In this document: one piece after another, positions 8,968-29,084 of the stretch
Layout of the letters: each line of letters opens with the position of its first letter
Numbering within the stretch: position 1 is the first letter of the stretch
The notes under the pieces: generated by a model
What the model was told of the DNA's origin: nothing
The model's input: the letters and a program-made list of their open reading frames with translations, nothing else
Databases searched by the model: none
DNA from: Elusimicrobia bacterium RIFOXYA2_FULL_47_53
Lineage (GTDB): Bacteria > Elusimicrobiota > Endomicrobiia > Endomicrobiales > XYA2-FULL-47-53
DNA length: 29,084 nucleotides
Direction: 5' to 3'
NCBI GenBank assembly: GCA_001800315.1
Contig: MGVE01000002.1
Location: 1-29,084 of the forward strand
Program-made: the position numbers and the translations under genes

Positions 8968-8999
8968 CTGCATAAATAAAACAAGAGGAGGTGAACACA

Positions 9000-9176: not shown

Positions 9177-9191
9177 AAAGTAATTCGTTAA

Positions 9192-9250
9192 TCCACCTTC
9201 TCCCTTGATGTTACTGAGGGGGAGGGAGAGGGTGGAAACTTTTTGCAGCC
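9192..9250 (+). terminator. Terminator-like inverted repeat after Flp pilin
   Basis: TCCACCTTCTCCCT (9192-9205) pairs imperfectly with GGAGGGAGAGGGTGGA (9221-9236), and AAACTTTTTG follows. It begins 16 bases after the pilin stop. The same kind of sequence is also a common dispersed repeat, so termination is uncertain. Confidence 0.4.
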
Positions 9251-10414: not shown

Positions 10415-12457
10415 ATGGCGGGAACCTACGCAGTTATTTCATTTTCCGCTGAACGGGAAATAATAGCGTCAAATTTTGCTTTGGCGCTCGCGGCCGAAGC
10501 GAAAACAAAAACCGTATACATAGATTTCTTCTCGCGGGAAGATAATTCAACGGAAACCTTATTCGGATTTAAACCCTCCAAAACGCTGGGAGAACTTATT
10601 AAGACAGTGCCAAAAATTGATCCGGAATTGTTAAACGGTTACCTGCCGGAGCACTCTTCCGGGCTTGCTATTGCCGCCGGTTATACGCCCGGAGAAAATG
10701 AGGATTTTGCCGCGATAGCGCCGCTTTTCTTAAATAGTATATCTTCCGCGTATCCGAATATCGTATTCTCTCTGCAAGCCGAAAATTACACCGCTCATCC
10801 GGAACTAATTAACAACAGCGATGTTGCGCTTATTTTCTGCGAGCCTCAGGCCATGGCGCTCTCAAAGGCCGGCGCATACATTGATTACCTGAAATCTCAT
10901 TTATATGGGGAAGAGCGAATAAAAATAATTTTACTGAGGCAAAAATCCCTGTCCTACATAAAAAATGAATCGGCCTCCAGATTTCTGTCAGTGAAAATAT
11001 TCTCCGAAGCTCAGTACAATCCGGAAGTCTTTGTAACAGCTATAAACAATTCCAAACCTGTTGTTTTATCTGACCCGCGCGATATTTTTTCCGCTTCTCT
11101 TAAGAATATCGCGAAATCTCTTCTGGAACTGAATTTAAAACAGCCGAGGGAAACCACCGCGCGCACCGCGGCCGAATTCTCTGACGCAAAGGAGCCCGCG
11201 GCAGACATGGCCGCGCTCAAGGAAAGCATTCATTCAGATCTTATCAAAACCATAGGCGCCGGCTCGGGAGTTTTTGACGATAAATCGGAAGAGACAAAAA
11301 ACAGGATTCGGTCAGTTTTAAAAGAACTTGTATCAAAATATGCCGGCGCTTTCCCAGTTGAGAAAAGACAGAAACTCCTTGAAGAGGTTTACAACGAGGC
11401 GCTCGGCCTGGGCTGCCTTGAAGACTTGTTAAAAGACAACGATGTGACTGAAATAATGGTAAATGGCGCGGACAAAATTTATGTTGAGAAAAAGGGAAAG
11501 ATCCAGTTAAGCGCGCAGGCATTTTCTTCCGATTCGCGCCTTAGAACCATTATTGACAGGATAGTCACTCCGCTGGGCAGAAGAGTTGACGAGGCTTCCC
11601 CGCTTGTGGACGCGAGGCTCTCTGACGGCTCGCGCGTGAATGTAATAATACCGCCGATCGCGCTAAACGGCTCGGCAATTACTATACGCAAGTTTTCCAA
11701 AAACAAGCTCAGTATAGAAGACTTGATTAAGTTCGGCGCTCTCAACGGTATTATGGCGGATTTTTTGAAAACCTGCGTGCTTCTGCGTAAAAATATTGTT
11801 ATATCCGGCGGCACGGGCTCGGGCAAGACCACTCTGCTCAATGTGGTTTCGTCATTTATACCTCCGGATGAAAGAATTGTAACCATTGAAGACTCAGCCG
11901 AACTTAAACTGCCACAGGAACATGTGGTGCGGCTTGAGTCAAGGCCGCCCTCGGTTGAGGGCTCCGGTGAGGTTTCAATAAGGCGTCTTGTAATAAACGC
12001 TCTGCGCATGCGTCCCGACAGAATAGTGGTGGGAGAATGCCGAAGCGGAGAAACTCTTGATATGCTCCAGGCAATGAACACAGGCCATGACGGATCACTT
12101 ACCACAATTCATTCAAACAGCCCGAAAGACGGAATTGGCAGAATAACAACCATGGCCATGATGTCAGGAACTGAACTGCCTGAAAAAGCTATAAGGGAGC
12201 AGATAGCCGCGGCGGTTCATCTCATTGTGCAGCTCACAAGGCTTTCGGACGGTTCAAGGAAAATAGTTGATATATCGGAAATCGCCGGCATAAAAAATGA
12301 TTCCGTTGTCATTATCCCGATATTTAAGTTTGAACAAACCGGCGTAAAAGACGGCAAGGTTGAGGGAAAATTCAAGGCAACAGGGAATATCCCGACATTT
12401 TTTGAAGAAATAGAAAAGCACGGCCTTAGCCTCAGCAAAACCATTTTTCAGCAGTAG
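10415..12457 (+). CDS. Fused TadZ/CpaE-like and CpaF/TadA ATPase
   Basis: 680 residues. Residues 1-240 resemble the MinD/ParA-like fold of CpaE/TadZ, the Tad localisation factor: ASNFALALAAEAKTKTVYID, then NNSDVALIFCEPQAMALSKA. The P-loop is degenerate, with FSAEREIIAS where GGVGKT would be expected, so ATP binding there is doubtful. A Lys/Glu/Ala-rich linker (240-300) leads to a full CpaF ATPase: LLKDNDVTEIMVNGADKIYV, Walker A GGTGSGKT (465-472), Walker B region MRPDRIVVGECRSGE (D535, E541) and the His box MNTGHDGSLTTIHSNS. CpaE and CpaF are normally separate adjacent genes. It is a paralogue of the ATPase at 4530. Confidence 0.88.
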   Translation: MAGTYAVISFSAEREIIASNFALALAAEAKTKTVYIDFFSREDNSTETLFGFKPSKTLGELIKTVPKIDPELLNGYLPEHSSGLAIAAGYTPGENEDFAAIAPLFLNSISSAYPNIVFSLQAENYTAHPELINNSDVALIFCEPQAMALSKAGAYIDYLKSHLYGEERIKIILLRQKSLSYIKNESASRFLSVKIFSEAQYNPEVFVTAINNSKPVVLSDPRDIFSASLKNIAKSLLELNLKQPRETTARTAAEFSDAKEPAADMAALKESIHSDLIKTIGAGSGVFDDKSEETKNRIRSVLKELVSKYAGAFPVEKRQKLLEEVYNEALGLGCLEDLLKDNDVTEIMVNGADKIYVEKKGKIQLSAQAFSSDSRLRTIIDRIVTPLGRRVDEASPLVDARLSDGSRVNVIIPPIALNGSAITIRKFSKNKLSIEDLIKFGALNGIMADFLKTCVLLRKNIVISGGTGSGKTTLLNVVSSFIPPDERIVTIEDSAELKLPQEHVVRLESRPPSVEGSGEVSIRRLVINALRMRPDRIVVGECRSGETLDMLQAMNTGHDGSLTTIHSNSPKDGIGRITTMAMMSGTELPEKAIREQIAAAVHLIVQLTRLSDGSRKIVDISEIAGIKNDSVVIIPIFKFEQTGVKDGKVEGKFKATGNIPTFFEEIEKHGLSLSKTIFQQ

Positions 12458-12469
12458 CAGTTTTTAGAA

Positions 12470-12640
12470 TCTGCGAAGTGGATCCCAGGCTGCTACCTCT
12501 GGGATGACGACACAGAAAAAGTCTGTCATTCCTGCGAAAGCAGGAATCCAGAAAAATCTCTGGATACCAGCTTCCGCTGGTATGACGATCCAAAAGCCCC
12601 ACACGCCGTCATCCCAGAAATGTTCTGTCTGGGATCCAGA
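12470..12640. repeat. Repeat cluster with tetraloop hairpins
   Basis: In order: ATCCCAGG/CTCTGGGAT (about 12482-12505); ATTCCTGC-GAAA-GCAGGAAT (12528-12547), a perfect stem with a GNRA-type loop; ATACCAGC-TTCC-GCTGGTAT (12564-12583); and ATCCCAGA/TCTGGGAT (12611-12635). Read as protein this gives VIPAKAGIQ...WIPASAGMT, a familiar spurious signature of dispersed repeats. It leads straight into the GIY-YIG gene. Confidence 0.88.
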
Positions 12641-12647
12641 AAATATT

Positions 12648-12935
12648 ATGAAAGAATACTATATATACATGTTAGCCAGCAATAAAAATGGCACACTGTA
12701 CATTGGAGTAACCGGTAACTTGCAAAAACGCATCTATGAACATAAAAATAAAATGATCTATGGATTTACAAAAAAATATAACATTGACAAATTAGTATGG
12801 TTTGAAAAAGCAGATGAAGCGATAACAGCCATAGCACGAGAGAAACAGATTAAGAGCTGGCATAGGGCATGGAAAATTAGATTAATAAACAAACATAATC
12901 CGAACTGGATGGACTTGTATTATGATTTGTTTTAG
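12648..12935 (+). CDS. Small GIY-YIG nuclease domain protein
   Basis: 95 residues from ATG 12648; the longer open frame upstream is repeat DNA. It is a single-domain GIY-YIG protein of the UPF0213/YhbQ-like type. It has YYIYMLASNKNGTLYIGVTG (the GIY and YIG strands), NLQKRIYEHK with the conserved Arg and His, and AREKQIKSWHRAWK carrying the conserved Glu, ending NPNWMDLYYDLF. Such proteins are predicted endonucleases; the cellular role of this group is not settled. It sits alone between repeat clusters and interrupts the Tad gene set, lacks a clear Shine-Dalgarno, and is more A/T-rich than its neighbours. Acquisition together with the repeats is possible. Confidence 0.88.
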   Translation: MKEYYIYMLASNKNGTLYIGVTGNLQKRIYEHKNKMIYGFTKKYNIDKLVWFEKADEAITAIAREKQIKSWHRAWKIRLINKHNPNWMDLYYDLF

Positions 12936-12939
12936 ACAT

Positions 12940-13155
12940 GGATCCCAGACTGAGCCCTCTGGGATGACGACTCAAAAAGGCCGCGCACTGTCATTCCAGT
13001 TGCAGTGCGGCGAATGAGCCGCACAAGCTTGCAACGGGTGCGAGATGTGAGCACACACAGGAATCCAGAAAAACCGATACCAGCTTCCACTGGCATGACG
13101 ACTATATAAAGCCGTCGTTCACTTATAACTTACAACTTAAAACTTATAACTTTAC
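12940..13155. repeat. Repeat cluster between GIY-YIG gene and tadB
   Basis: Contains ATCCCAGA/TCTGGGAT (about 12942-12966), nested hairpin C copy 2 (12999-13066), an ATACCAG...CTGGCAT hairpin (about 13075-13096), and the heptamer array CTTATAA, CTTACAA, CTTAAAA, CTTATAA (13120-13149) after GTCGTTCA. No gene is seen. Confidence 0.82.
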
Positions 13156-13194
13156 AAGTTGCTTGGGATCCAAATATCTCATAAAGGTGGAATG

Positions 13195-14070
13195 ATGACT
13201 ATAATATTTAAACTCTTGGCCGTATCGCTTACAGGAATCGTTTTCTTTTACGCAATAAAGATTTTATCTTCCCGAATGGCGATGAACACAAAAGACAAGG
13301 CAATCGGCAAAAACTCTGTTGCCTGGTTTAACCTTGATTTCAAAAAAATATATCCGGAACTCCTGAAAGACCATAACTCCGGAAAATCAAAAAACATCAA
13401 ACTGCTTGTGGCTTGCGCCGTTACGGTGTTGTCATTTATTGTAATCGGTAAAATTCTTTTCGCTCTAATATGCGGTTTTGCGGTATATACCGCTATCAAT
13501 ATGTATTTCAATAAAATAAGGAACAGAAAAATTAAACTTTTTGACGACCAGATTATTGAGGCGCTCGGCATGATAACTTCATCGGTCAGGGCCGGGCAGT
13601 CGCTTATTCAGGCAGTTGAAAACATGGTCAAAAACATGAAACCTCCGGTTTCAGATGTTTTCGGGGAAGCTTTAAACAATATTAAGATGGGCATGCCGGT
13701 AAACGATGCTTTCATGAAAATTTCTGAAAAATTTGACAGCAAAGACCTGCGCCTGGCGGTACTTTCAATGAATCTGGCCCGGGAATCCGGCGGCAATATA
13801 GGTGAGATTTTAACCAGGCTCTGCGACACTATGCGCGAAAGAAAGAAAATACAGGGCAAAGTTGAAGCGCTGACGGCGCAGGGCAAAGCTTCGGGCATGG
13901 TTATGAGCGCGGTTCCGTTTTTGCTTCTGCTTGTGTTGTATGCCATGGAACCGGGCATGACAGGCCTTCTCTTCAGCACATTTTTAGGAAACATTCTGCT
14001 TACGATTGTTATCGCAATGATTTCCCTGGGCTATTTTGTCATAAACAAAATAGTGCAAATAGATATTTAA
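13195..14070 (+). CDS. tadB: Tad pilus inner-membrane protein TadB (T2SSF family)
   Basis: 291 residues from ATG 13195, four bases after AAGGTGG; ATG 13192 and TTG 13159 are alternatives. It is an inner-membrane platform protein of the type II secretion F family. A membrane helix at the N-terminus is followed by helices around residues 68-100 (LLVACAVTVLSFIVIGKILF), the cytoplasmic T2SSF domain (FDDQIIEALGMITSSVRAGQ, NIKMGMPVNDAFMKISEKF, LARESGGNIGEILTRLCDTM) and two C-terminal helices. Its partner TadC lies 713 bases downstream across repeat DNA; in most Tad loci the two are adjacent. Confidence 0.9.
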   Translation: MTIIFKLLAVSLTGIVFFYAIKILSSRMAMNTKDKAIGKNSVAWFNLDFKKIYPELLKDHNSGKSKNIKLLVACAVTVLSFIVIGKILFALICGFAVYTAINMYFNKIRNRKIKLFDDQIIEALGMITSSVRAGQSLIQAVENMVKNMKPPVSDVFGEALNNIKMGMPVNDAFMKISEKFDSKDLRLAVLSMNLARESGGNIGEILTRLCDTMRERKKIQGKVEALTAQGKASGMVMSAVPFLLLLVLYAMEPGMTGLLFSTFLGNILLTIVIAMISLGYFVINKIVQIDI

Positions 14071-14084
14071 AATTTTCGGCCACT

Positions 14085-14730
14085 TGCTGTCATTCTCGGA
14101 ATGCTCTGTCTGGAGTCCAGCAAAGCCCGTCATTCCGGAAATGTTCAGTCCGGAATCCATAACAATGGCATTTAGTAAATGTCTCTAAGAAGTGGATCCC
14201 AGACTGCGTCCTCTGGGATGACGACACAGAAAAAGTCCGTCATTCCAGTTGCAGTGCGGCGAATAAGCCGCACAAGCTTGCAACGGGTACGAGATGTGAG
14301 TACACACAGGAATTCAGAAAAGCTGTCATCACAGAAATGTTCTGTCTGGGATCCAGAAGTAAAACAAAAACCTCTGGATACCAGCTTCCACTGGCATGAC
14401 GACAAAAAAAGACCTATCATAGCCGGCTCAGAAGGGGTATAAAAACGAAAAGCCCCTTAAAGACTTACAGTCACAAACAAGCCGTCATACTGAGCGTAGC
14501 GAAGGATCTCGCTTTGTCGTCATTCCGGAAATGTTCTGTCCGAAATCCACAAAAGGTTGTCATTGCGAGGAATGCGGCGACGCGGCAGTCCGCCAACGAC
14601 ACAGTGGCGGAAAGCAATCTCGTAGTTAAATGGTTTTGTAGCTGCGCAGCTTGCTGCGCGTTCCGTAAAATCTGTCATTCCAGAAATACCTCTGGATACC
14701 AGCTTCCGCTGGTATGACGACACAGAAGCC
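14085..14730. repeat. Repeat cluster between tadB and tadC
   Basis: About 650 bases without a gene. It includes an imperfect CATTCTCGG...CTGGAGTCC (14093-14120); ATTCCGGA/TCCGGAAT (about 14133-14157) with the CAATGGCATTT spacer and ATCCCAGA/TCTGGGAT (about 14196-14221); nested hairpin C copy 3 (14248-14315); ATCACAGA/TCTGGGAT (about 14329-14353); ATACCAG...CTGGCAT (about 14376-14398); element E copy 2 (14417-14477); a GAGCGTAGCGAAGGATCT element (about 14491-14510); ATTCCGGA...TCCGAAAT (about 14522-14547); the GTGGCGG..AGCAATCTCG element (14557-14670); and ATACCAGC/GCTGGTAT (about 14696-14716). Confidence 0.82.
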
Positions 14731-14732
14731 CG

Positions 14733-14772
14733 TCGTTCACTTATAACTTACAACTTAAAACTTATAACTTTA
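14733..14772. repeat. Heptamer array (CTTANNN)4 before tadC
   Basis: GTCGTTCA is followed by CTTATAA, CTTACAA, CTTAAAA and CTTATAA, then CTTTAAAGGAGC, which carries the tadC ribosome binding site. The array at 13120 has the same unit order. Confidence 0.78.
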
Positions 14773-15680: not shown

Positions 15681-15689
15681 CCATTCCCT

Positions 15690-16570
15690 CAGCCCCGAAG
15701 TGTCAAACCTGGAATCCAGCAAGGCCCGTCATTCCAGAATGGTTCTGTCTGGAATCCACAACAATGGCATTTCATCAATGTCTCAAAGAAGTGGATCCCA
15801 GACTACTACCTCTGGGATGACAACAAAAGAAGCCGTCATTGCGAGGAACGCGGCGGCGCGTCAACACGCCAACGGTTAAGTAAGTGGCGGGAGAGTCCGC
15901 CAAAGGTTCAGTGGCGGGAGAGTCCGCCGAAGACACAGTGGCGGGAAGCAATCTCGCGGTTAGTTGGTTTTGTAGCTGCGCAGCTTGCTCAGCGTCCGTA
16001 AATCCGTCATTCCGGAAAAACCACTGGATACCAGCTTCCGCTGGTATGACGACACTGAAGCGCCACACGCCGTCATTCCAGAATGGTTCTGTCTGGAATC
16101 CACAACAATAGCATTTCATCAATGTCTCTAAGAAGTGGATCCCAGACTACTACCTCTGGGATGACAACAAAAGAAGCCGTCATTGCGAGGAACGCGGCGG
16201 CGCGTCAACACGCCAACGGTTAAGTAAGTGGCGGGAGAGTCCGCCAAAGGTTCAGTGGCGGGAGAGTCCGCCGAAGACACAGTGGCGGGAAGCAATCTCG
16301 CGGTTAGTTGGTTTTGTAGCTGCGCAGCTTGCTCAGCGTCCGTAAATCCGTCATTCCGGAAAAACCACTGGATACCAGCTTCCGCTGGTATGACGACACT
16401 GAAGCGCCACACGCCGTCATTCCAGAATGGTTCTGTCTGGAATCCACAACAATAGCATTTCATCAATGTCTCTAAGAAGTGGATCCCAGACTACTACCTC
16501 TGGGATGACGACACAGAAAAAGTCTGTCATTCCCGACTGTATCCGCTGGTATGACGACTCACAGAAGTCC
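15690..16570. repeat. Repeat cluster containing a 344-bp tandem duplication
   Basis: Two near-identical 344-bp units start at 15727 and 16071, and a partial third (about 95 bases) starts at 16415. Each unit has ATTCCAGA/TCTGGAAT, the CAATAGCATTT spacer, ATCCCAGA/TCTGGGAT, a GCGAGGAACGCGGCGG element with three GTGGCGGGA segments, GCTGCGCAGC, and ATACCAGC/GCTGGTAT. I see two differences between the full copies (CAATGG/CAATAG and TCTCAAAG/TCTCTAAG). Identical 75-codon open frames in both copies are repeat artefacts. Confidence 0.9.
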
Positions 16571-16636
16571 GTCGTTCACTTATCCCTTACCACTTACCGC
16601 TTATCCCTTACCACTTACCGCTTATCCCTTACCACC
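16571..16636. repeat. Heptamer array (CTTANNN)8
   Basis: GTCGTTCA is followed by eight CTTANNN units with the same 21-base higher-order pattern as 129-212 (CTTATCC, CTTACCA, CTTACCG). The array ends at CTTACCACCGTAG. Confidence 0.82.
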
Positions 16637-16771
16637 GTAGTTCCGTGTGCTTTTTGTCACATGCCATTGATTTTTCAGATAAAACAAGCAATAGTATTAG
16701 TGGCCCGCTAAGGTAGTTTATCAAATCATTTTCATTTACTATTTTTCACAATAACTATCCCAATTTTTTAG

Positions 16772-17159: not shown

Positions 17160-17610
17160 CGACGATTACAAAGATTTTATAAACCTGCTTAATAAGTTCG
17201 GGGTGAAATATCTTATAGTTGGCGCTTATTCGGTTATTTTTCACACCAACATTCCAAGAGAGACAAGGGACATTGACTTCTGGATAGAAAAGAACAGCAA
17301 AAATGCAGAAAAATGCGCGAAGGCTATCCATGAGTTTTGCGGAATACTAATTGACAAGAATGATTTGTTGGGTGAAAAAGAAATATTTTTTATCGGAGAG
17401 GAACCTAACAGGATTGATATATTTAACACTCAAAAACATATCTCCTTTGAATCTGCTTTTAAAAATAGAAAAGTCGGCGACTTTCAGGGAATAAAAGCCT
17501 ATTTTATCTCGGCTCCCGATCTGGTAAAACTCATGGAGAACTTTAGAAGAGACATTGACTTAAAAGATGTCAAGAGGATTAAAACCTCACTTAAAAACCA
17601 TCATGAATAA
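17137..17610 (+). CDS. Nucleotidyltransferase-fold protein
   Basis: 157 residues. FGVKYLIVGAYSVIFHTNIP leads to RETRDIDFWIE, the hG(G/A/S)...DhD pattern of minimal nucleotidyltransferases (related to DUF6036/DUF1814-type or AbiEii-like NTases), with Asp-Ile-Asp as the likely metal-binding pair. Later NRIDIFNTQ may hold the third acidic residue. The C-terminus (LVKLMENFRRDIDLKDVKRIK) is helical and of the type often annotated as 'DLI.NK...R.KDl.Dl..L'. Such proteins act alone or as parts of toxin-antitoxin pairs. Its start lies inside the upstream small gene, and it has no separate ribosome site. Confidence 0.8.
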   Translation: MAKEKQINDDYKDFINLLNKFGVKYLIVGAYSVIFHTNIPRETRDIDFWIEKNSKNAEKCAKAIHEFCGILIDKNDLLGEKEIFFIGEEPNRIDIFNTQKHISFESAFKNRKVGDFQGIKAYFISAPDLVKLMENFRRDIDLKDVKRIKTSLKNHHE

Positions 17611-17634
17611 AATATTCTCAAAACTACTATCCTC

Positions 17635-17960
17635 TGTCATTCCCGAGCGGGGCTGTCGGGAATCCATCAAGGCCTGTCATTCCTGTGCAAACAGGAATCC
17701 AGAAGTAAACCTAAAGGCTGGATCCCAGACTACTACCTCTGGGATGACGACTCAAAAAAACCACACGCTGTCATTCCGGAATTGTTCTGTCCGGAATCAA
17801 AACAAGCCTGTCATTGCGAGCGAAGGGACGCGTCAGCCCGCCAAAGGTTCAGTGGCGGGGGAATCCAAACAAGTCCGTCATTCTTTCATAGCACATACCC
17901 TAAAACTTATAACCGACAATTTCCGTTCACTTATCCCTTACCCCTTAGCCCTTACCACTG
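17635..17960. repeat. Repeat cluster before the giant gene
   Basis: In order: ATTCCCGA/TCGGGAAT (17639-17663); ATTCCTGT-GCAA-ACAGGAAT (17679-17698); ATCCCAGA/TCTGGGAT (about 17723-17746); ATTCCGGA/TCCGGAAT (about 17773-17798); a GTGGCGGGGGAATCC fragment (about 17812-17866); and a heptamer array CTTATCC, CTTACCC, CTTAGCC, CTTACCA (17930-17957) after CCGTTCA. The open frame at 17782 is read through repeats. Confidence 0.85.
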
Positions 17961-17965
17961 TCTTT

Positions 17966-20900
17966 ATGGCATTTTCTCTCGCGCACGCGGGCCCGGCTGC
18001 GATAACGAGCCTTACGGCCTCAACTACATGCCAATTACAGGTTATGCTCACCTGGACAGCTCCCGACAACGGAGCCGCGGGAGCATGCAGTTCATACCTT
18101 GTCAAGTACTCAACTATTTCTGACATTGTGGATGATGCGGCATTTACAACGGCGACGACTTACCCTCAAAGCTGGTCGCCTCGCACGCCGGGCCTTGTAG
18201 AAAAGAAGTTCCTTACAGGCCTTATTCCAAGCGTCACTCATTACTTTTCAATAAAAGGGGAATACAGCGGCCAATACGCGGCTCCGTCAACGACAGGAAC
18301 CAATGTTGGCTATACAGGTTTTTTCTACGCAAAAGTATCACTGCAGGCGCTGGGACAGACTGGTGTAGCCTGGGGCGACTACGACAACGATGGCGACTTA
18401 GACATCGCCGCTATTGGAAACAATTCGGCAAATATCTATAGAAACGATAACGGAACTTATAACAATATCAACGCGGGCCTGACAGGAGTATATTATGTAA
18501 ATGATCCGGACTGGGGCGACTACGACAACGACGGTGACCTGGACTTATTTGTTCCATATTATAATTATATCTACCGCAATGATTCAAATGTGTTCCACAA
18601 TATTAATGCCGGGTTTCCCACAACTTATGGCGCCTCAACCGGTGCATGGGGTGACTACGACAATGATGGCGACCTGGATATAGCAGTTTCTGGGGGAAGC
18701 CCTGCTTTTTCAGCCATCTACCGTAATGATTCAGGAATATTTAATAATATTAACGCCGACTTATCTGGATTATATGGTGGCTCAACTTCTGACAGAACTT
18801 GCGTGGTATGGGGGGATTACGACAACGACGGCGACCTGGATCTTGCTGCCTGCGGAAAATATAATAGCAATCCTTTGACTGTATTATACCGCAACGATTC
18901 AGGCGTTTTTAATAAAATATCCGCGGGCTTGGCTAATGTTTACAGTTCCGGAGGCGGCTTTGCCTGGGGCGACTACGATAACGACGGCGACCTGGATATT
19001 GCTTTAACCGGCAATAACATATCAGCGATCTACCGCAATGACGCTGGTACATTTATCAACATTAATGCCGGCCTGATTGCCTCACTTGGAGGTTCCGTTA
19101 TTTGGGGTGATTATAATAACGATGGAAATTTAGACCTGGCGCTTTTAGGTGCTTTGGGAAGCAATTATTTTTTATACTTCTATAAAAATATTTCCGGAAC
19201 TTTTGTCAATGACGGTGTTAATTATGAAAGTTTTTATCAAGGCAGTATAGCCTGGGGCGATTACGACAATGACAACGACCTGGATATTGCTGTCTTTGGA
19301 CAATCCCCTTATGGAATAAATTCCTCATACATATATCGTTCATGTATTGCCGAATATGGATTGATAAATACTGCCCCGACAGCCCCCTCAAGCGGATTCG
19401 GCTCTGATTATAACAGTACGACCGGCATTTTGAAGCTCTGGTGGGATTACGGCTCCGATGCCGAGACAACCGAACAGAAAGGCTTGTATTATACTGTGCG
19501 CATTGGCACGACTACCCCTATGACTGACGCAAATGCCAATAAAGTTTCCTGGAAGTCCGGCTCATCGCTTCTTGGCAATTATCCTCATGGGTACATAGTG
19601 GCCCAGTCAACACAATGCGGTTTCAACTATCACCCGAGGCTCACGGACGCCACCTATTACTGGCAGGTGCGCACAATTGACACCTCTTTGAAAGAATCGG
19701 CATGGTCAAGCGAGCAGTCAACCTATGTTCCGGCAGGTGTTCCTCCGATATATGACCTTGCCGCCACAAAAGATTATCAGATCAAGCTTGCGTGGACATC
19801 TCCTGGGGGAGCCGCCGGCTATGTTGTGAAGTATTCCACATCCAACAATATTACCAATGAAACGGAATTTACTAACGCCACGACTTACTACCAGAGCTGG
19901 GCGCCGGCGGCTGCAGGAGCGGGGGAAAGCAAACTTCTGACCGGACTTATTTTTAACACCACTTATTGGTTCTCAATTAAAAGTTATAGCGGTTCAAACT
20001 ATTCGGCGATTTCTTCAACAGCGAACAACAGGGCCGTTGCCAGTTTATTCAGCATTAACGAGTCAACCCTGACGGCTATCGCCGATGCCTATCTTGCGTG
20101 GGGCGATTACGACAACGACGCCGACCTGGATCTGGCTGTCTGCGGTGGAGCGACTTCCTTTATTTACCGCAACGATTCCGGCGCTTTTAAAAACATCAAC
20201 GCCGGACTGACGGGCTTTAGTAATTCCGCGCTCGCCTGGGGAGATTACGACAACGACGGTGACCTGGACCTTGCCGTGGGCTACCTCATTTACCGCAACG
20301 ACTCCGGCGCTTTTAACAACATAAACGCGGGCCTGACAGCCGTGACAAGATCCTCTCTTGGCTGGGGCGACTACGACAACGACGGCGACCTTGACTTAGC
20401 TGTCTTAGGCACTACAAACGGCGCTGACTCCGGCGGCACAACATACATCTACCGCAACGACTCGGGCGCTTTTGGCAACATAAACGCAGGACTCCAAGGT
20501 TTTAACATGGGCAGGCTCGCCTGGGGCGATTACGACAACGACGGCGACCTGGACCTTGTTGTCAATGGTAACGGTAAAACATCAACTTATTCAACCGACC
20601 TGTACCGCAACGATGCGGGTGCGTTCAATAAAGTAAATTCGGGGTTAACGGGGCTGTCCAATTATTCCACACTCACCTGGGGCGACTACGACAACGACGG
20701 CGACCTGGATTTAGCTGTCTGCGGCTACGCATTTCCTGAAACCCTTTCCCGTATTTTCAGAAACGACACAGGTTACTTTAATAACATAAGCGCACCTTTA
20801 GTGGGAATACGATTCGGTAATGTGGCTTGGGGCGACTATGACAACGATGGCGACCTGGACCTTATAATTTCCGGACAATACTACTATTGGCCTACAACTT

Positions 20901-23900
20901 CAGTTTACAACTTATCCTACCTATACAGAAACGACTCGGGAAGTTTCATTAATATTTACGCAGGACTTCCGGCCCTGAGTTATTCCTCGCCTGCCTGGGG
21001 CGATTACGACAACGACGGTGACCTGGACCTGGCTTTGGCGGGCGGTAGCACGGCCAAAATATATGTATCTCACCAGGCAGAATTAGTATCCGCAAACTCT
21101 ACACCCTCGGCTCCCTCAAGCGGTTTCGGCGGCGACTTCAACGCTGACACCGGTGTTTTGCAACTCCGTTGGGATTATGGTTCCGATGTTGATATGCCGG
21201 CAAAAGAAAAAGGGTTAAATTATACGGTGCGCCTTTCAACAATCACGCCCATTAGCGATACAAATTCAAGATTTGTTTCATGGCGGCCGGCAACGCCATT
21301 TATGGGCAACTACCCGCACGGCTATATTATCGCCGCCTCAACACAGTGCGGTTTTAACTTTAAGCCTACACTGACCGGCGTTACATACTACTGGCAGGTG
21401 CGCTCTATTGATACCTCCTTAAAAGAATCGGCATGGTGCGTTGAGCAGTCAACCTATGTGCCCTACATCCCACCCACCATTCAAACTCTTTCCGCTGTGC
21501 AGGACAGCCAGTTGAAACTAACCTGGACAGCGCCTGACGGTATAGAGGGATACCTGCTAAAATATTCAACTTCGGCAAACATTACAACCGAATCGGCGTT
21601 TACAAACGCCGCCACCTGGTATCAGGCCTGGACACCCGCCGCCGGAGGCTCCGCCGAAACAAAAATACTGACGGGTCTATTTCCGGATACAACATATTTC
21701 TTTTCCATTAAGGCCAAAAGCGGCGCAAGTTACGGCAGGCTTTCAAACACGACTAGCAATTACGCTATTCCAAGAACTTTTATCGTTTACGGATCTACCT
21801 CAATGCTTCAAGGACTTGATTATGCCTCGCTTGCCTGGGGCGATTATGATAACGACGGAGACCTGGACCTGGCTGTATGCGGCAGAAATGCCTCAACCCA
21901 ATATAAAACCTATATATATCGCAACGACTCAGGAACTTTTAATAACATTAATGCAGCCATAACCGGATTATATATGGGTTCTATCACCTGGGGAGATTAC
22001 GACAGCGACGGGGATCTGGATCTGGCCTTATCTGGTGTTGATGCAACAACCCGCTATACTTTTATTTACCGCAACAATTCCGGTATTTTTAACAACATCA
22101 ACGCTGGCCTGACAGGTTTATATAATTCTTCGCTTTCCTGGGGCGACTATGACAATGACGGCGACTTGGATCTCGCCGCTTCCGGATTGGATTCCGGAAA
22201 TAACCCAAAAAGCTACATTTACCGCAATGATTCGGGAGCTTTTTACGACATTAACTCAGGTATAACAGGAGTTGGTTATTCATCATCCGCCTGGGGCGAC
22301 TACGATAACGACGGCGATTTGGATTTAGCAATTTCAGGATGGAGCGGATCTTTTCTCTCACGAATATACCGCAATGATTCCGGAGCATTTAATAACATTG
22401 GCGCCGCTCTCGCCGGAGTATATTTGGGTGCAATTGCCTGGGGCGACTACGACAACGACGGCGACCTGGACCTCGCGCTCACAGGAACAGACGGAACCAG
22501 GAGGGCTTTTGTTTACAGAAATACCGCGGGAAACTTCGCAAGTGTTGCCACTCTGACCGGTGTGGATTATTCCTCACTTTCCTGGGGCGACTTTGACAAC
22601 GACGGCGATCTGGATCTCGCCATATCCGGCAACAATACTCTTAATATTTATAGAAATAATGCCGGCACATTTTCAAACATTAATGCCGGGCTAACGGGAA
22701 TTAGCACTACCAATTCAATAGCCTGGGGCGACTTTGACAATGACGGTGACATTGATCTTGCCGTTGCCGGCGGAGGCACCTACCCTTATAGCAATATTAT
22801 CTACCTGAACTACTACTCGGTAAGCGTGCCCAACACAGCGCCCGCGGCTCCCGCAGGCGGCTTTTCTTCAAGCTTTGAACAATCAACAATGAAGGTTACA
22901 CTCAACTGGTCCTACGGCTCCGACGCTGAAACAACGGTGCAAAAGGGCCTCTACTACGCCGTAAGGGCCTCAACTGAAACCCCGATAACCGACGCTAACG
23001 CTAATCTAATTTCGTGGCGCCCCTCATCGCCAATGCTCGGCAACTACCCGCACGGGTATGTGGTTGCCGCATCAACACAAAGCGGCGCTATAATTGTTGC
23101 CAAAACTGAAGGCTCAACCTTCTACTGGCAGGTACGAACCATTGATACAGCGCTTAAAGAATCGCCCTGGTCAAGCGAACAATATATCTTCGTCCCTCCG
23201 ATAAAACCGGGCGCTGTAACAACGCTTGAAGCCGCGACCTGGACCCCCGAAGACAGCATAAAACTTAGCTGGATAAGCCCCGGCGACGACGGCTATGTAA
23301 ACACCATAACAGGGGGGAAATACAAGGTTCGGTACTCATCTATCGCGGCTCAGCCCTGGGACTCTATGCCCTACGAAATCGCCTGGGACACAAACACTAC
23401 TCCAGGCTCCTGGCGCAACCGCGTAATTTCCGGCCTCGCCGATTCAACAACATACTACTTTAACATTAAAACACAAGACGAAATACCCGAAAACTGGTCT
23501 GACCTCTCAAGCGGCGCGACAGCTTACACCCTTGACACCGAAGCGCCCGGCAAAATAACAAGCCTCGCCGCTAACTTTAGCAACAGGGATGTCTTTCTCT
23601 CATGGGTCTCACCAGGCGATAACAGCTACCTCCACGACATTGAATCAGGCCAATACGAAATTTCATACTCGTCGGTACCAAGCTTCGCCTCAGATACCGT
23701 CACAATCACCTTCTCTACAGCTATTGCCCCGGGCCTGTTCCAAACCTCGCTCATCACAGGGCTCTCGGGCTTTACCTCCTACTACTTCCGCATTCGCGCA
23801 GCCGACGAAGTGCCGTTCTGGTCAACTATATCGGATAATGCCACAGGCTACTGCCACGGCACACCCATAGCCGCTTCGCCAACCTTCACGCATATAAGCA

Positions 23901-26900
23901 CCGCCTCCGTAAACGCTCACTGGACAATTAACGGCAACACACTGGCCCAGTATGTCTGCGAACTATCAACCGCGGCTGACTACTCTCTGCAATACACCTC
24001 ATCAAACTGGCTGCCGGCAAACTCTGAAGCTTTCACATTCAACCCGCTAAGCATCAACACCACCTTCTACTTCCGCGCTAAAGCTAAAGATAACGCCGAC
24101 GCCGAAAGCCCGTGGCTGGTTATGGGCGCAACTTCAACCCTCGCTATTCAAGTCAATGCGCCGGCCCTTGAAGGAATAGACGACGACACCTACGGAACAT
24201 ACATGCTCGTAACCATTAGCAGTGTCGGCGCTCTAGGCATAAACCCGGCCTGGACCGAATACGCAATTCTTAACATTGAAACAGGCGGCTTCCTACAAGG
24301 CGACGGATCCACCTCAACAGCTTCCGTATGGAAAACAAAAGCCGCCTGGGAAACTAACTACGCCAACAGACACGCAGGCCTTGAACCTTATTCCTCTTAC
24401 AGCTACCGCGTCAAAGCCCGCGGAAACGGGCTGGCCGAAACATCTATCAGCTCGCCGGCTTCAGCATTAACACCTTCAGGCCCGCCCTCAACTGTCACCG
24501 TCACCGAGGAAAACGACGATAAACTAAATATCACCTGGTCAGCCGTAGGGCCGGCTATTACCTATAATGTCTACTACGCCACCGCAACCGACGGCGTATG
24601 GACAAGCTCGTTTACCGGTATCGCCGACACAACCTACTCCGACGACATAAACGGCGGCGTCAGCCAGACCACTGGCGTAGCCCTGACCCCGCTTTCTACA
24701 ACTCAAATCACCATAGACTGGGCCACCTGCGGCGTTATAGACAGCGCCACACGCTACTACAAAATTACCACCGTATCCGCCGGCGGCGAGTCACGCAAAA
24801 GTTCCATAGGTTCAGGCACCCGTTTTGTAACGCCCATTATAACCACCTATAACATTTACCGCGACTCCGTATTCCTTACATCGGTTTCAAGCGATACTTT
24901 AACCTTCACTGACTCTAACCTTACTCCTAACACATCCTACTCTTATCAGCTGGCAGGCTACTCAAGCGATTCTATTGAAGGCCAGCTCTCAGTATCAACC
25001 TCTGCCTGGACTCGCGCTCAAACTTCAGGCGCGCCGGCTATCTATGCCGTTGACACAAGACAGGCTAACTTTACCATTGATATCTCTGGCAACTCCCAGC
25101 TGACCGAATATGTTGTCGCCATATCCTCCGATAACTGGAACTCAATAAGATACCTCCAAAATTCCGCCTTCACCGCTTACTCAGCCGTGGTGTGGCACAC
25201 CACTGATACCTGGCACTCCGTCACAACCGATACCATTAAAGGACTTAACTGCGGAACCGCATATAAAGCTAAAGTCAAATCCCGCAATGTTGACGGCGTA
25301 GAACAGCCATTCGGCGAAGAAACCTCGTTTACCACACTGCTCGCCACAGCTCCGTTCGTCACTGCCGTCACAACCGGCTCAATTTCCTTTGAATTTATCC
25401 GCGCTAACGACCGCCAGGACACAGAATACACTCTTGCTCTCTCTACCGACAGCTGGGCAACTTTTAAATACCTCCAATTGGGCGGCTCAACCTCCGTTAA
25501 CTCGGAAATGTGGCAGACTACCACCGCATGGAACGCTTCAATGTCTAACATAATCACAGGCCTTGTGCCAAATTATAACTACCTCCTTAAAACAAAAAGC
25601 AGAAACTCTACGCTTGAAACCGATAACATCTACGGCTACGCCGCCTCAACCTATACCCTGGCAAATACGCCCGTCGCCGCCGCATATTCCAACTTAGCTC
25701 CAAATGTCATCCAGGCTAACTGGAACGCTAACCTTAACTCCAATTTCACCGAATACTACGCCGAAAATATTACTAAAACAACTAACTCCGGCTGGTCTAA
25801 CTCGCTATCCTGGCAGGAACTAGGCCTCGCCCCAAATACCAGCTTCTACTATCAGGTGCGCGCCAGAAACTATGACGCCATACAAACCTCAACCGCTTCA
25901 CTCGGCTATAAATATACCTACGCTCACACGCCCTCAACCCCTACTCTTACAGCAGACTACGACGCTATAAACGAATACTTCGTTGATATTACCATTAACT
26001 CAGACGCCAACCCCGATTACACCGAATACGCCATTTACGGCGGAAACGACGGCGAAGGACGCGGCTGGCTCCAGGGCGACGGCACAAGAGGATCACCGGG
26101 TTCCCCTGTCTGGAAAACCAAAGCCCTCTGGGAACTGCCGGGCATTAACCGCAATAACCACCTCTCGGCTTCCACAGACTACGATTTCGCTATTCGCGCA
26201 AGAAATGTTGAAGGCGTTGAAACCGCTAACGGTGTCGCCACACACCTCATAACCCTGCCGCCTAAAGTCACCCTCGGCGGCGTTAACGAAATGTCCGACG
26301 ACTTCCTGCGCGCTTCCTGGGCGCCGGTCACCAATATCATCTATTACAGAGTTTATCGCTCCTCAGCCTCAGACGGCACCTTCACACAGCTCTCTACCAC
26401 TACAGCTACTACCTACGACGACGATGTCAACGGCAACGCGCCCTCCTATACGCCGACACTATCGTTCTCTAATGTAACTAACACTTCCATACAGCTCAAC
26501 TGGGACATTGACTCAGAACTCCTTACACCCAGCACTTCCAACTACTATCAGGTCTCTGCCGTAACAACAGGCGGCGAAGGACCAAAAAGCGATGTCATAG
26601 GCAACTATGTCACACCCATTATATCAGGATACAGGGTTTACCGGTTCGGCGTTATCATTTCAACTTCGCCTAACCTTAACACCACCTCTTATATCAATAC
26701 GCCCCTTGCTCCCAACACAAGTTCCGTCTACGAAATATCCGCCATCACCTCAGACTCCCTGGAAGGCGCTAAGTCGCCACAGCAAACTAAGTGGTCCCTG
26801 GCTAATACACCGCTCGCTCCTTCCGTGGAAGCTAACTGGGACGAAATTAACCTCTACCGCTGCTATGTCACCGTCAACACAAATTCTAATTCACCGGAAA

Positions 26901-29084
26901 CCGAGTACGCCGTCACTATCGCATCTATGGGCGTTTTCGGCAACTGGTGGGTCGGCGCTGACAACCTTATAACACAAACCACCTACTGGTCCACCAATAC
27001 CCTCTGGCTTAACAAAGGGCTCACCGGCTCCACAAGCTATTACTATAAAGTCACCGCAAGAAATATGGAAGGCGTTGCAACCGTACTGTCACCTCAAACC
27101 CTTGGCCGCACACCGCCTATACCGGGGCCCAAGTTCTTTGCCATGACTTCTCGCGCTCCAACCTATTTGTCCTGGACCTGGACCGATCCCGGCAACGATG
27201 AAACAGGCTTTAAAGTTTATTCCACTACAGGCGGCACCGTTTCACCGGTCCTTCTTCCTAACACCACCTTCTGGACCGAATATGGCCTCCTGCCTAACAC
27301 CACCTACGCAAGGTATGCCAAGGCTATCGGCCCGGGCCCCGACTTTGAAGAAAGCTTCCCGTCTAACGCTACGGATTTCTATACCCTTATGACTAACCCG
27401 ACTGATCTCACTTTTGTCAGCTTTACTACAACCACTATTACCGTGGCAAACTCTTTCGCGCCGCCTAACATATCTTCAGCCGCCTCAGGCGTTTATTTCT
27501 ACAATACCACAAGTTCTACCGTCTCAGGCTGGCTGCAGAATAACTCCTGGACCTCCTCAAATCTCGGCCTTAACAAACAGTACGCTTTCAAACTTAAACT
27601 CCGCAACGGTAACGCCGTTGAAACTCCCGAAACCGCTCAGTTCCAAAAATATACCGCCGCTGAAACTCCCAGGGCGCCTACACTGTTTAAACCTACAGCC
27701 ACCGGATTTCAAATCATTTTTAAAAACGATAACAACCCGGACTACACCACCTATTCCATTAAAGTATCTACCCTCGGCAATACCGACCTGTTCGTTCAGC
27801 AGGGCGGTACCGTCGCGCCCTCCGCCTTCTTCCAGACTAAGGCATCCTGGGGCGTCGTAACTTCAAGCGGCCTTAGCCCTATGACCACTTATTATGTTTC
27901 CGTCAACGCGCGCAACGGCGATAACGACCAGACTACCTACTCGGCTGTATCTACCGTCCGCACCTGGGGCTTTGCGCCAACACTGGCAGGCGGCTACGAC
28001 TCTACCCTCGGATACTACATCACTATCACCATCAATCAGGGCGATAATACAACAGATACTAAATATGCTATAGCCAACGCTGACAGCGGATGGTATTTAG
28101 ACGGGAACGGCCAAACGCTGCCAACCGCTACTTACGAAACTAAATCCTGGTGGGATGAAGTTACTTATAGAAACGCTCATCTTTCGTTAAACCCAGCTAA
28201 ACTTTACAGTTACCGCGTCTTTTCATTTGATCCCGTCAGTTCCAATACCGTGGTCTCGGCACAGATATCTATTCACACGCCGCCGTCTAATCCGCTGTTT
28301 AACTCGGTGTCTGAAAAGAATTCCGATTACCTTGAACTGAAATGGTCTCTGCCCTCGGTGGGGGAAACTCTGCCGGAATTCTACAACATATATTCAGCCG
28401 CATCGTCCAGCGGCACACTTGTATTTGTTTCAAGCACAACCGAGCTTAGCTTCGCCCACGATATTGACGGCTCGGTGCCCGAAAAAGTCGCGTCCCTCGC
28501 GCCGGTCGTTCAAAGCTCCACCACCGTTGCCTTGTCCTGGGGCGCTGTCACACTGCCTTCTTCAAGCTCTACCAGATATTACCGCATAAAAGCAGGCAAC
28601 GACGGCGGCGAAGGCCCGCAGTCTACCGAACTTTCCGGCTTTGTCACGCCTGCACTTAAAGCTTACAAGCTTTACAGGGACAATCTCCTGCTTGTAACAC
28701 TTTCAAGCTCCTCGTTAAGTTATACCGATTCATCGCTTTTACCCGACACCACCTACTCGTACAGGGTCGCGGCTCTATCCACAGACGACCTGGAAGGCTC
28801 ACAGTCCGATGCCGCTACCGTGCTCTCGTTCCCTAAAGGCATTCCGCTTCCGGACGATGTCGTCGGCCTTAAACTCGTATCCTCCGACGGCGCTACAGCC
28901 TCTTTTAGCTTCTCGCCGGTAACAAAACGCGTTGACGGCAAAGATATCGGTAACAAGCTTAAAGGATACACCGTTTACCGCTCAAATACCCTCGCGGGGC
29001 CCTGGACCTTAATCAAATTTATACCTTACGGCTCTGCCGCCGAGTTCTCGGACGCTTACGCCGGCGCCCTCTACTATTACCGCG
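17966..29084 (+). CDS. Giant exported FG-GAP/Fn3 protein, 3' end outside window
   Basis: One open frame, with no stop from before 17852 to the window end, gives over 3,706 residues from ATG 17966. AFSLAHA looks like the end of a signal peptide. Residues about 5-110 are Fn3-like. Three blocks of seven WGDYDNDGDLDLAV repeats start at residues 136, 712 and 1291. D-x-D-x-D-G-x-L-D is the calcium loop of FG-GAP/VCBS repeats, and seven per block suggests three seven-bladed propellers. Each block is followed by a module with GNYPHGY and then TYYWQVRTIDTSLKES; an Fn3 domain follows the first two. From about residue 1755 on there are many Fn3-like modules. It is probably a secreted or surface protein. 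The start is uncertain: ATG 17966 alone leaves no hydrophobic core, and an in-frame GTG 17852 would read through the heptamer array. Confidence 0.85.
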   Translation, partial: MAFSLAHAGPAAITSLTASTTCQLQVMLTWTAPDNGAAGACSSYLVKYSTISDIVDDAAFTTATTYPQSWSPRTPGLVEKKFLTGLIPSVTHYFSIKGEYSGQYAAPSTTGTNVGYTGFFYAKVSLQALGQTGVAWGDYDNDGDLDIAAIGNNSANIYRNDNGTYNNINAGLTGVYYVNDPDWGDYDNDGDLDLFVPYYNYIYRNDSNVFHNINAGFPTTYGASTGAWGDYDNDGDLDIAVSGGSPAFSAIYRNDSGIFNNINADLSGLYGGSTSDRTCVVWGDYDNDGDLDLAACGKYNSNPLTVLYRNDSGVFNKISAGLANVYSSGGGFAWGDYDNDGDLDIALTGNNISAIYRNDAGTFININAGLIASLGGSVIWGDYNNDGNLDLALLGALGSNYFLYFYKNISGTFVNDGVNYESFYQGSIAWGDYDNDNDLDIAVFGQSPYGINSSYIYRSCIAEYGLINTAPTAPSSGFGSDYNSTTGILKLWWDYGSDAETTEQKGLYYTVRIGTTTPMTDANANKVSWKSGSSLLGNYPHGYIVAQSTQCGFNYHPRLTDATYYWQVRTIDTSLKESAWSSEQSTYVPAGVPPIYDLAATKDYQIKLAWTSPGGAAGYVVKYSTSNNITNETEFTNATTYYQSWAPAAAGAGESKLLTGLIFNTTYWFSIKSYSGSNYSAISSTANNRAVASLFSINESTLTAIADAYLAWGDYDNDADLDLAVCGGATSFIYRNDSGAFKNINAGLTGFSNSALAWGDYDNDGDLDLAVGYLIYRNDSGAFNNINAGLTAVTRSSLGWGDYDNDGDLDLAVLGTTNGADSGGTTYIYRNDSGAFGNINAGLQGFNMGRLAWGDYDNDGDLDLVVNGNGKTSTYSTDLYRNDAGAFNKVNSGLTGLSNYSTLTWGDYDNDGDLDLAVCGYAFPETLSRIFRNDTGYFNNISAPLVGIRFGNVAWGDYDNDGDLDLIISGQYYYWPTTSVYNLSYLYRNDSGSFINIYAGLPALSYSSPAWGDYDNDGDLDLALAGGSTAKIYVSHQAELVSANSTPSAPSSGFGGDFNADTGVLQLRWDYGSDVDMPAKEKGLNYTVRLSTITPISDTNSRFVSWRPATPFMGNYPHGYIIAASTQCGFNFKPTLTGVTYYWQVRSIDTSLKESAWCVEQSTYVPYIPPTIQTLSAVQDSQLKLTWTAPDGIEGYLLKYSTSANITTESAFTNAATWYQAWTPAAGGSAETKILTGLFPDTTYFFSIKAKSGASYGRLSNTTSNYAIPRTFIVYGSTSMLQGLDYASLAWGDYDNDGDLDLAVCGRNASTQYKTYIYRNDSGTFNNINAAITGLYMGSITWGDYDSDGDLDLALSGVDATTRYTFIYRNNSGIFNNINAGLTGLYNSSLSWGDYDNDGDLDLAASGLDSGNNPKSYIYRNDSGAFYDINSGITGVGYSSSAWGDYDNDGDLDLAISGWSGSFLSRIYRNDSGAFNNIGAALAGVYLGAIAWGDYDNDGDLDLALTGTDGTRRAFVYRNTAGNFASVATLTGVDYSSLSWGDFDNDGDLDLAISGNNTLNIYRNNAGTFSNINAGLTGISTTNSIAWGDFDNDGDIDLAVAGGGTYPYSNIIYLNYYSVSVPNTAPAAPAGGFSSSFEQSTMKVTLNWSYGSDAETTVQKGLYYAVRASTETPITDANANLISWRPSSPMLGNYPHGYVVAASTQSGAIIVAKTEGSTFYWQVRTIDTALKESPWSSEQYIFVPPIKPGAVTTLEAATWTPEDSIKLSWISPGDDGYVNTITGGKYKVRYSSIAAQPWDSMPYEIAWDTNTTPGSWRNRVISGLADSTTYYFNIKTQDEIPENWSDLSSGATAYTLDTEAPGKITSLAANFSNRDVFLSWVSPGDNSYLHDIESGQYEISYSSVPSFASDTVTITFSTAIAPGLFQTSLITGLSGFTSYYFRIRAADEVPFWSTISDNATGYCHGTPIAASPTFTHISTASVNAHWTINGNTLAQYVCELSTAADYSLQYTSSNWLPANSEAFTFNPLSINTTFYFRAKAKDNADAESPWLVMGATSTLAIQVNAPALEGIDDDTYGTYMLVTISSVGALGINPAWTEYAILNIETGGFLQGDGSTSTASVWKTKAAWETNYANRHAGLEPYSSYSYRVKARGNGLAETSISSPASALTPSGPPSTVTVTEENDDKLNITWSAVGPAITYNVYYATATDGVWTSSFTGIADTTYSDDINGGVSQTTGVALTPLSTTQITIDWATCGVIDSATRYYKITTVSAGGESRKSSIGSGTRFVTPIITTYNIYRDSVFLTSVSSDTLTFTDSNLTPNTSYSYQLAGYSSDSIEGQLSVSTSAWTRAQTSGAPAIYAVDTRQANFTIDISGNSQLTEYVVAISSDNWNSIRYLQNSAFTAYSAVVWHTTDTWHSVTTDTIKGLNCGTAYKAKVKSRNVDGVEQPFGEETSFTTLLATAPFVTAVTTGSISFEFIRANDRQDTEYTLALSTDSWATFKYLQLGGSTSVNSEMWQTTTAWNASMSNIITGLVPNYNYLLKTKSRNSTLETDNIYGYAASTYTLANTPVAAAYSNLAPNVIQANWNANLNSNFTEYYAENITKTTNSGWSNSLSWQELGLAPNTSFYYQVRARNYDAIQTSTASLGYKYTYAHTPSTPTLTADYDAINEYFVDITINSDANPDYTEYAIYGGNDGEGRGWLQGDGTRGSPGSPVWKTKALWELPGINRNNHLSASTDYDFAIRARNVEGVETANGVATHLITLPPKVTLGGVNEMSDDFLRASWAPVTNIIYYRVYRSSASDGTFTQLSTTTATTYDDDVNGNAPSYTPTLSFSNVTNTSIQLNWDIDSELLTPSTSNYYQVSAVTTGGEGPKSDVIGNYVTPIISGYRVYRFGVIISTSPNLNTTSYINTPLAPNTSSVYEISAITSDSLEGAKSPQQTKWSLANTPLAPSVEANWDEINLYRCYVTVNTNSNSPETEYAVTIASMGVFGNWWVGADNLITQTTYWSTNTLWLNKGLTGSTSYYYKVTARNMEGVATVLSPQTLGRTPPIPGPKFFAMTSRAPTYLSWTWTDPGNDETGFKVYSTTGGTVSPVLLPNTTFWTEYGLLPNTTYARYAKAIGPGPDFEESFPSNATDFYTLMTNPTDLTFVSFTTTTITVANSFAPPNISSAASGVYFYNTTSSTVSGWLQNNSWTSSNLGLNKQYAFKLKLRNGNAVETPETAQFQKYTAAETPRAPTLFKPTATGFQIIFKNDNNPDYTTYSIKVSTLGNTDLFVQQGGTVAPSAFFQTKASWGVVTSSGLSPMTTYYVSVNARNGDNDQTTYSAVSTVRTWGFAPTLAGGYDSTLGYYITITINQGDNTTDTKYAIANADSGWYLDGNGQTLPTATYETKSWWDEVTYRNAHLSLNPAKLYSYRVFSFDPVSSNTVVSAQISIHTPPSNPLFNSVSEKNSDYLELKWSLPSVGETLPEFYNIYSAASSSGTLVFVSSTTELSFAHDIDGSVPEKVASLAPVVQSSTTVALSWGAVTLPSSSSTRYYRIKAGNDGGEGPQSTELSGFVTPALKAYKLYRDNLLLVTLSSSSLSYTDSSLLPDTTYSYRVAALSTDDLEGSQSDAATVLSFPKGIPLPDDVVGLKLVSSDGATASFSFSPVTKRVDGKDIGNKLKGYTVYRSNTLAGPWTLIKFIPYGSAAEFSDAYAGALYYYR
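18371..19300 (+). other. FG-GAP block 1 (seven repeats)
   Basis: Repeats begin (Trp codon) at 18371, 18512, 18647, 18809, 18965, 19103 and 19253, spaced 45-54 residues. Each has WGDY(D/N)ND.(D/N)LD followed by IYRND and NINAGL. The sixth (NNDGNLD) and seventh (NDNDLD) are the most divergent. Confidence 0.85.
20099..21060 (+). other. FG-GAP block 2 (seven repeats)
   Basis: Repeats begin at 20099, 20237, 20363, 20522, 20678, 20828 and 20996, in the same frame as block 1. The first has DADLD in place of DGDLD. Spacing is 42-56 residues. Confidence 0.85.
21836..22815 (+). other. FG-GAP block 3 (seven repeats)
   Basis: Repeats begin at 21836, 21989, 22139, 22292, 22439, 22583 and 22724. The last two have WGDFDNDGD. 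The GNYPHGY module follows at 23039. Confidence 0.85.
23220..29084 (+). other. Fn3-like module array of the giant protein
   Basis: About 1,950 residues of Thr/Ser/Asn-rich Fn3-like modules. Two kinds alternate: an 'interleaved' pair with a (S/D)D(I/V)(N/D)G motif (tryptophans at 24536, 26318 and 28343), and a variant with TEYAI..., an insert such as WLQGDG...VWKTKA.W, then Y.YRVKARN..G.ET (near 24250, 25100, 25420, 25750, 26010, 26900, 27740 and 28050). The frame remains open at the window edge. Confidence 0.7.

What the first reader, a model, noticed from the sequence alone, without database searches (positions are those of the whole stretch)
17966..29084. A >3,700-codon open frame with 21 FG-GAP repeats grouped as exactly 3 x 7
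All 21 WGD(Y/F)DNDGDLD-type motifs are in one frame and fall into three blocks of seven, separated by other domains. Seven is the blade number of integrin-type FG-GAP propellers, so the layout argues for three complete calcium-binding propellers rather than a loose array. The frame runs off the window, so the full protein is larger.
Basis: partly seen in the sequence, partly recalled or inferred. Interest (0 to 1): 0.75.

Follow-up and report, generated by a model that had tools for sequence, protein, structure and literature searches.

The report
Giant three-propeller bacterial surface protein
The long gene really encodes three seven-bladed calcium-type propellers on a long stalk, like three sister genes in the same genome, but seven blades per ring is the general rule for this known bacterial protein family.

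Summary
One frame (17567-29083, open at the contig end) holds 21 WGDxDND motifs in three blocks of exactly seven, and a blade HMM finds no missed or extra blades. AlphaFold2 models of ring 1 and ring 3 superpose end to end on closed seven-bladed propellers (CRTAC1 Z 31-32, LGI1 EPTP Z ~30, integrin alpha Z 25-28). Ring 2 has the same motifs and modelled strand pattern but was not matched separately. The window is a whole contig, so the frame cannot be extended. A 69%-identical sister gene (4,120 aa) suggests that only ~265 residues are missing, including a C-terminal tail near the type IX secretion tail cut-off. The genome has three more such genes, with 3x7, 4x7 and 5x7 blades on a ~578-residue Fn3-propeller-linker module. 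In 80 relatives from many phyla, 105 of 113 internal blocks have exactly seven blades and two more have 14. Seven is therefore a family rule, and published work already describes bacterial integrin-type and tandem propellers. Most likely this is a secreted or surface-anchored giant adhesin or lectin-like protein: propeller heads on an Fn3 stalk, perhaps exported by a type IX-like route. New member of a known kind; modest interest.

The parts
17567..17992 (+). 5' leader of the frame: start candidates ATG 17567 or ATG 17603 (MNKIFSKLLSS), a stretch of dispersed-repeat sequence, then the signal-peptide-like LIPYPLALTTVFMAFSLAHAG
   Evidence: repeat copies at 17633-17986; the LIPYPLALTTVFMAFSLAHAG block is shared by the WIN, C4 and C8 genes. 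The true start is unresolved.
17993..18310 (+). Fn3-like domain 1 (module 1)
   Evidence: Weak Pfam fn3 match (E 0.12); beta domain in model; Fn3 of modules 2 and 3 score better.
18311..19366 (+). Propeller 1, seven FG-GAP blades (motifs at residues 269-563)
   Evidence: model; whole-ring superposition.
19367..19732 (+). Linker 1 (NTAPTAPSSGF...YWQVRTIDTSLKESAW...YVP), Fn3/Ig-like
   Evidence: Recurs after every ring in the own-genome paralogs.
19733..20044 (+). Fn3-like domain 2
   Evidence: Pfam fn3 E 0.0023, below cut-off.
20045..21100 (+). Propeller 2, seven FG-GAP blades (motifs at residues 845-1144)
   Evidence: strand pattern in model (not matched separately).
21101..21466 (+). Linker 2
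21467..21772 (+). Fn3 domain 3
   Evidence: Pfam fn3 E 1.2e-8, over cut-off.
21773..22822 (+). Propeller 3, seven FG-GAP blades (motifs at residues 1424-1720)
   Evidence: model; whole-ring superposition.
22823..23191 (+). Linker 3
   Evidence: 58% identical to linker 1.
23192..29083 (+). Ser/Thr-rich array of Fn3-like domains (stalk), cut by the contig end
   Evidence: Pfam fn3 E 1.5e-18 (6 stretches) and 1.1e-17 (3 stretches); no transmembrane segment.

Best explanation
This is one of a four-member family of giant secreted modular proteins. Each has a leader peptide, then 3 to 5 copies of a ~578-residue module (Fn3-like domain, closed seven-bladed FG-GAP propeller with up to one calcium site per blade, Fn3/Ig-like linker), then a long Ser/Thr-rich Fn3 stalk and, in the complete sister, a short C-terminal sorting-type domain. 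Shown: sequence architecture, exact blade count, predicted ring fold for rings 1 and 3, paralogy. Inferred: the protein is carried to the outside, possibly by a type IX-like system. There calcium stiffens the rings and the stalk holds them away from the cell, so that several propeller faces bind ligands (carbohydrate or protein) multivalently, as an adhesin or lectin.
For: Exact 3x7. Sister genes 3x7, 4x7, 5x7 with the same module. Pfam FG-GAP_3/FG-GAP/fn3. Models and fold matches to CRTAC1, LGI1 EPTP and integrin alpha, with fungal lectins PVL/AAL also in the Foldseek list. Full-length sister C8 (69% identical over the whole frame) ends in a domain at the TIGR04183 T9SS-tail cut-off. The genome has other tails over that cut-off and a SprA-like translocon candidate. 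The window itself has a weak PorV-family match at 1531-3351. Acidic protein (pI 4.3) with no transmembrane helix. The VCBS family is described as signal-bearing prokaryotic proteins, often with several propellers, linked to carbohydrate or protein recognition (PMC8023676, PMC9218822).
Against: No ligand, calcium or localisation evidence. The window protein's own C-terminus is missing. SprA-like hits are below the curated cut-off, and no PorU sortase was found beyond tail-like matches. The start codon and signal peptide are unresolved because repeat sequence lies in the leader. Three of 21 calcium loops are altered.
Confidence: 0.65

Rival explanations
1. The propellers are structural spacers only: the whole molecule is an S-layer or matrix fibre, and the rings have no specific ligand.
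For: The ~50-residue blades are highly alike within and between rings (mean identity 56-59%), so no ring shows an obviously specialised site. The long Fn3 stalk dominates the length.
Against: Loops between the motif strand and the YRN strand vary in length and sequence from blade to blade. The nearest solved folds are interaction domains.
Confidence: 0.2
2. The rings are enzymes or enzyme partners, as in aldos-2-ulose dehydratase and family 11 rhamnogalacturonan lyase propellers.
For: Aldos-2-ulose dehydratase matches the ring models at Z 28-30.
Against: Only 11-13% identity; no catalytic domain found by Pfam or NCBIfam; near-symmetrical blades without a unique pocket signature.
Confidence: 0.05
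3. The frame is an assembly or recombination artefact of repeat copies.
For: The contig ends inside the gene, and the 3' part is 96-97% identical in protein to a sister gene (DNA 90-94%). A sister contig has an N run in the same region.
Against: The frame is open for 3,839 codons. Propeller regions are only about 50-69% identical in protein to the sister. A complete sister gene with the same 3x7 layout lies on a 319-kb contig.
Confidence: 0.04
4. A loose FG-GAP array that does not form discrete rings.
For: None found; considered as the null.
Against: 105 of 113 internal blocks in relatives have exactly seven repeats and two have 14. Models close over the full length of seven-bladed references.
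Confidence: 0.02

Closest known systems
VCBS / FG-GAP_3 (PF13517) propellers of the VCBS-integrin supercluster (PMC8023676)
   Same: DxDxDG loop in the blades, seven blades, signal-bearing prokaryotic proteins with several propellers and interaction domains
   Different: Three rings (sisters 3-5) in one giant Fn3-stalked chain with a fixed ~578-residue module
Bacterial integrin-type seven-bladed propellers of Chouhan et al. 2011 (PMC3192720)
   Same: Seven sequential FG-GAP/calcium repeats with one calcium motif per repeat, regular spacing, tandem sets of seven
   Different: That paper reports single and double (14-repeat) cases; here 3, 3, 4 and 5 rings separated by Fn3 and linker domains
Metazoan integrin alpha head
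   Same: Ring fold superposes end to end (Z 25-28)
   Different: No transmembrane segment in the sister's complete chain; calcium motifs in nearly all blades rather than three or four; Fn3 stalk
CRTAC1 (9etn)
   Same: Best solved relative by sequence profile (E 3e-15) and by fold (Z 31-32)
   Different: Animal protein with a single ring; 15-18% identity
Fungal PVL/AAL lectins
   Same: Listed among Foldseek matches (17-18% identity); known seven-bladed propellers that bind GlcNAc
   Different: Sugar pockets not tested here

Membership tests
FG-GAP/VCBS seven-bladed propeller (PF13517) | Profile match over curated cut-off in each block | tested here: met
   115.9, 112.7 and 127.0 bits against 26.9
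FG-GAP/VCBS seven-bladed propeller (PF13517) | Seven blades per ring | tested here: met
   7+7+7 by regex and HMM
FG-GAP/VCBS seven-bladed propeller (PF13517) | Closed ring fold | tested here: met
   Rings 1 and 3 superpose on whole seven-bladed chains; ring 2 not matched separately
FG-GAP/VCBS seven-bladed propeller (PF13517) | Calcium bound in the AB loops | not testable with these tools
   Motif canonical in 18 of 21 blades; binding not measurable
Integrin alpha subunit | Transmembrane segment near the C-terminus | tested here: not met
   No hydrophobic 19-residue segment in the complete sister C8 or in the window frame
Integrin alpha subunit | Thigh and calf domains | tested here: inconclusive
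   Pfam lists fn3-type domains and no integrin leg domain, but a fold comparison of the stalk was not run
Type IX secretion substrate | C-terminal sorting domain (TIGR04183) | tested here: inconclusive
   Window C-terminus missing; sister C8 at 23.0 bits with neighbours, cut-off 23, but 20.5 bits when the tail was scanned alone
Type IX secretion substrate | SprA translocon in the genome | tested here: inconclusive
   Three pieces of the SprA model in one 1,768-aa frame, best 76 bits, below the 200-bit cut-off
Type IX secretion substrate | PorU sortase in the genome | tested here: inconclusive
   All listed matches cover only the C-terminal end of the model and are far below cut-off

The most novel reading that the evidence does not exclude
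A paralogous family of giant adhesins in which the ring is kept at exactly seven blades while the number of whole ring modules varies (3, 3, 4, 5) on a shared stalk. Genes may lie in tandem and exchange modules and 3' ends by recombination, with export by a divergent type IX-like system outside Bacteroidota.
Probability: 0.35. Interest if true: 0.45.

Novelty: new member of a known kind. Interest (0 to 1): 0.3.

Why it matters
It gives a clean, countable case that selection or folding holds bacterial FG-GAP rings at seven blades while whole rings are added or lost: 15 of 15 own-genome rings, and 105 of 113 internal blocks in a cross-phylum sample. It also gives a natural series of 3-, 4- and 5-ring proteins in one genome for studying multivalent binding and module duplication. 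The basic fold and its presence in bacteria are already described.

Tried and rejected
A link to Elusimicrobiota is therefore only a guess from genome sizes and from the reported excess of huge proteins in that phylum (PMC11573180). No exact overlap joins the window end to other contig ends. Blade phylogeny: nearest blades are mostly at other positions (57 of 70), so blade-by-blade descent is not resolved. The module tree pairs WIN and C8 modules by position with modest to good support. Ring 2 did not appear in the fold list of the two-module model, which ring 3 filled. NCBIfam gave no match for the whole protein; no Rfam family or tRNA in the window; no paper in the held library has FG-GAP repeat, T9SS and adhesin together.

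Full report
Observation. The window is the whole of contig G000:C2 (29,084 b). A single frame runs from ATG 17567 to the contig end, 3,839 codons without a stop. All 21 WGDxDND-type motifs are in this frame and none in the other five. They fall at residues 269-563, 845-1144 and 1424-1720, with 42-56 residues between motifs and 280-282 between blocks. A blade HMM run without filters also returns 7+7+7 and no weak extra blade. Eighteen of 21 loops are canonical DxDxDGxxD.

Architecture. Pfam FG-GAP_3 scores 115.9, 112.7 and 127.0 bits in the three blocks (cut-off 26.9), FG-GAP also passes, and fn3 passes before ring 3 and in the C-terminal 2,000 residues. The repeating unit is about 578 residues: Fn3-like domain, seven blades, Fn3/Ig-like linker. 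The rest is a Ser/Thr-rich Fn3-like stalk. No transmembrane segment was found.

Fold. Module 1, folded with an alignment of own-genome and cross-phylum rings, gives pLDDT 86.8 and pTM 0.86. Its residues 109-458 superpose on complete seven-bladed chains: CRTAC1 Z 31.4, LGI1 EPTP Z about 29.5, aldos-2-ulose dehydratase Z 28.5, integrin alpha Z 25-26 over chain residues 1-452. A model of modules 2 and 3 together is weaker overall (pLDDT 75, pTM 0.48), but ring 3 again superposes on whole chains (CRTAC1 Z 32.1, integrin alphaIIb Z about 28). Ring 2 has the same motif spacing and modelled strand pattern but was not listed separately.

Sister genes. The genome has three more: C8 (4,120 aa, 3x7, 69% identical over the whole window frame), C4 (4x7, cut by its contig end) and C14 (4,660 aa, 5x7, 36-37% identical). 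All 15 rings have seven blades. In a module tree the WIN and C8 modules pair by position. Protein identity between WIN and C8 is about 50-69% in the rings and 96-97% at the 3' end. At the DNA level the 3' ends of these genes are 90-94% identical, which may explain why contigs C2 and C4 break there. The first 291 bases of C4 carry a second copy of the 3' end, 98.6% identical to C8's, 1.3 kb before the C4 gene. One reading is that it is the missing end of the window gene, with about 530 bases lost between, so that the window and C4 genes are in tandem. This is inference.

Is seven special? No. In 80 loci from a genome-collection scan, spanning more than ten phyla, 105 of 113 internal blocks of three or more blades have exactly seven and two have 14; blocks of 4, 5, 6 and 8 account for the rest. 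The loci were ranked by similarity to a roughly seven-blade query, which biases against short blocks but not against long ones, and secondary blocks in the same proteins were not selected. Proteins with two to seven rings occur in that set. Chouhan et al. 2011 already described bacterial seven-repeat propellers with one calcium motif per repeat and tandem sets (PMC3192720), and Pereira and Lupas placed PF13517 in a VCBS supercluster of signal-bearing prokaryotic proteins that may carry several propellers (PMC8023676).

How it probably works. Most likely a secreted or surface-anchored giant binding protein: calcium-stabilised rings as heads, Fn3 stalk as spacer. The complete sister C8 ends in a domain that reaches the TIGR04183 cut-off only with its neighbours in the frame (23.0 of 23 bits), and scores 20.5 bits when scanned alone. 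The genome has other tails over the cut-off and a SprA-like frame below the curated cut-off. The window holds a weak PorV-family match. No convincing PorU was found. Export by a type IX-like route is therefore plausible but not shown. The ligand is unknown; VCBS propellers are typically tied to carbohydrate or protein recognition (PMC9218822).

Neighbourhood. Upstream on the same strand lie Tad/Flp pilus genes (secretin 3776, ATPases 4518 and 10415, RcpC/CpaB 9550, TadB/C-like 13159 and 14784) and a small nucleotidyltransferase (17137). Nothing here ties the giant protein to the pilus beyond position.

Verdict. Observation confirmed and interpretation supported, with ring 2 and calcium binding not tested directly. 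New member of a known kind; interest 0.3.

Noticed in passing
G000:C6:90173-142201 (minus strand; loci L131, L133, L134): A stop-free frame of 17,343 residues without N, Ig-like in appearance, whose end weakly resembles the T9SS-type tail.
   Followed up: partly
window 1-220, 7544-9500, 12449-14770, 15685-16656, 17617-17986: Dense dispersed repeats (GTCATTCC..GGAATCC, TTCCGCTGGTATGACGAC and others) between genes. The 18-mer has 59 matches genome-wide with up to two mismatches, against 0 for the reversed control.
   Followed up: partly
window 17603-17992: Dispersed-repeat sequence fills the 5' leader of the giant gene and of its C4 and C8 sisters, and the signal-peptide-like LIPYPLALTTV is read from a repeat-like TTCACTTATCCCTTACC unit. 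No ATG, GTG or TTG lies in frame between 17852 and 17966.
   Followed up: partly
window 15726-16369: A 344-base tandem duplication of intergenic repeat sequence, 99% identical over 300 bases.
   Followed up: no
window 4518-5567 and 10415-12457: Two TadA/CpaF-type ATPase genes in one Tad cluster, the second fused to an N-terminal ~290-residue region.
   Followed up: no
G000:C1:16026-19043 (minus strand; loci L125, L126): A 1,768-aa frame with three pieces of the SprA (type IX translocon) model, below the curated cut-off.
   Followed up: partly
L082: A Bacteroidetes MAG protein with seven separate seven-blade blocks in one frame.
   Followed up: no
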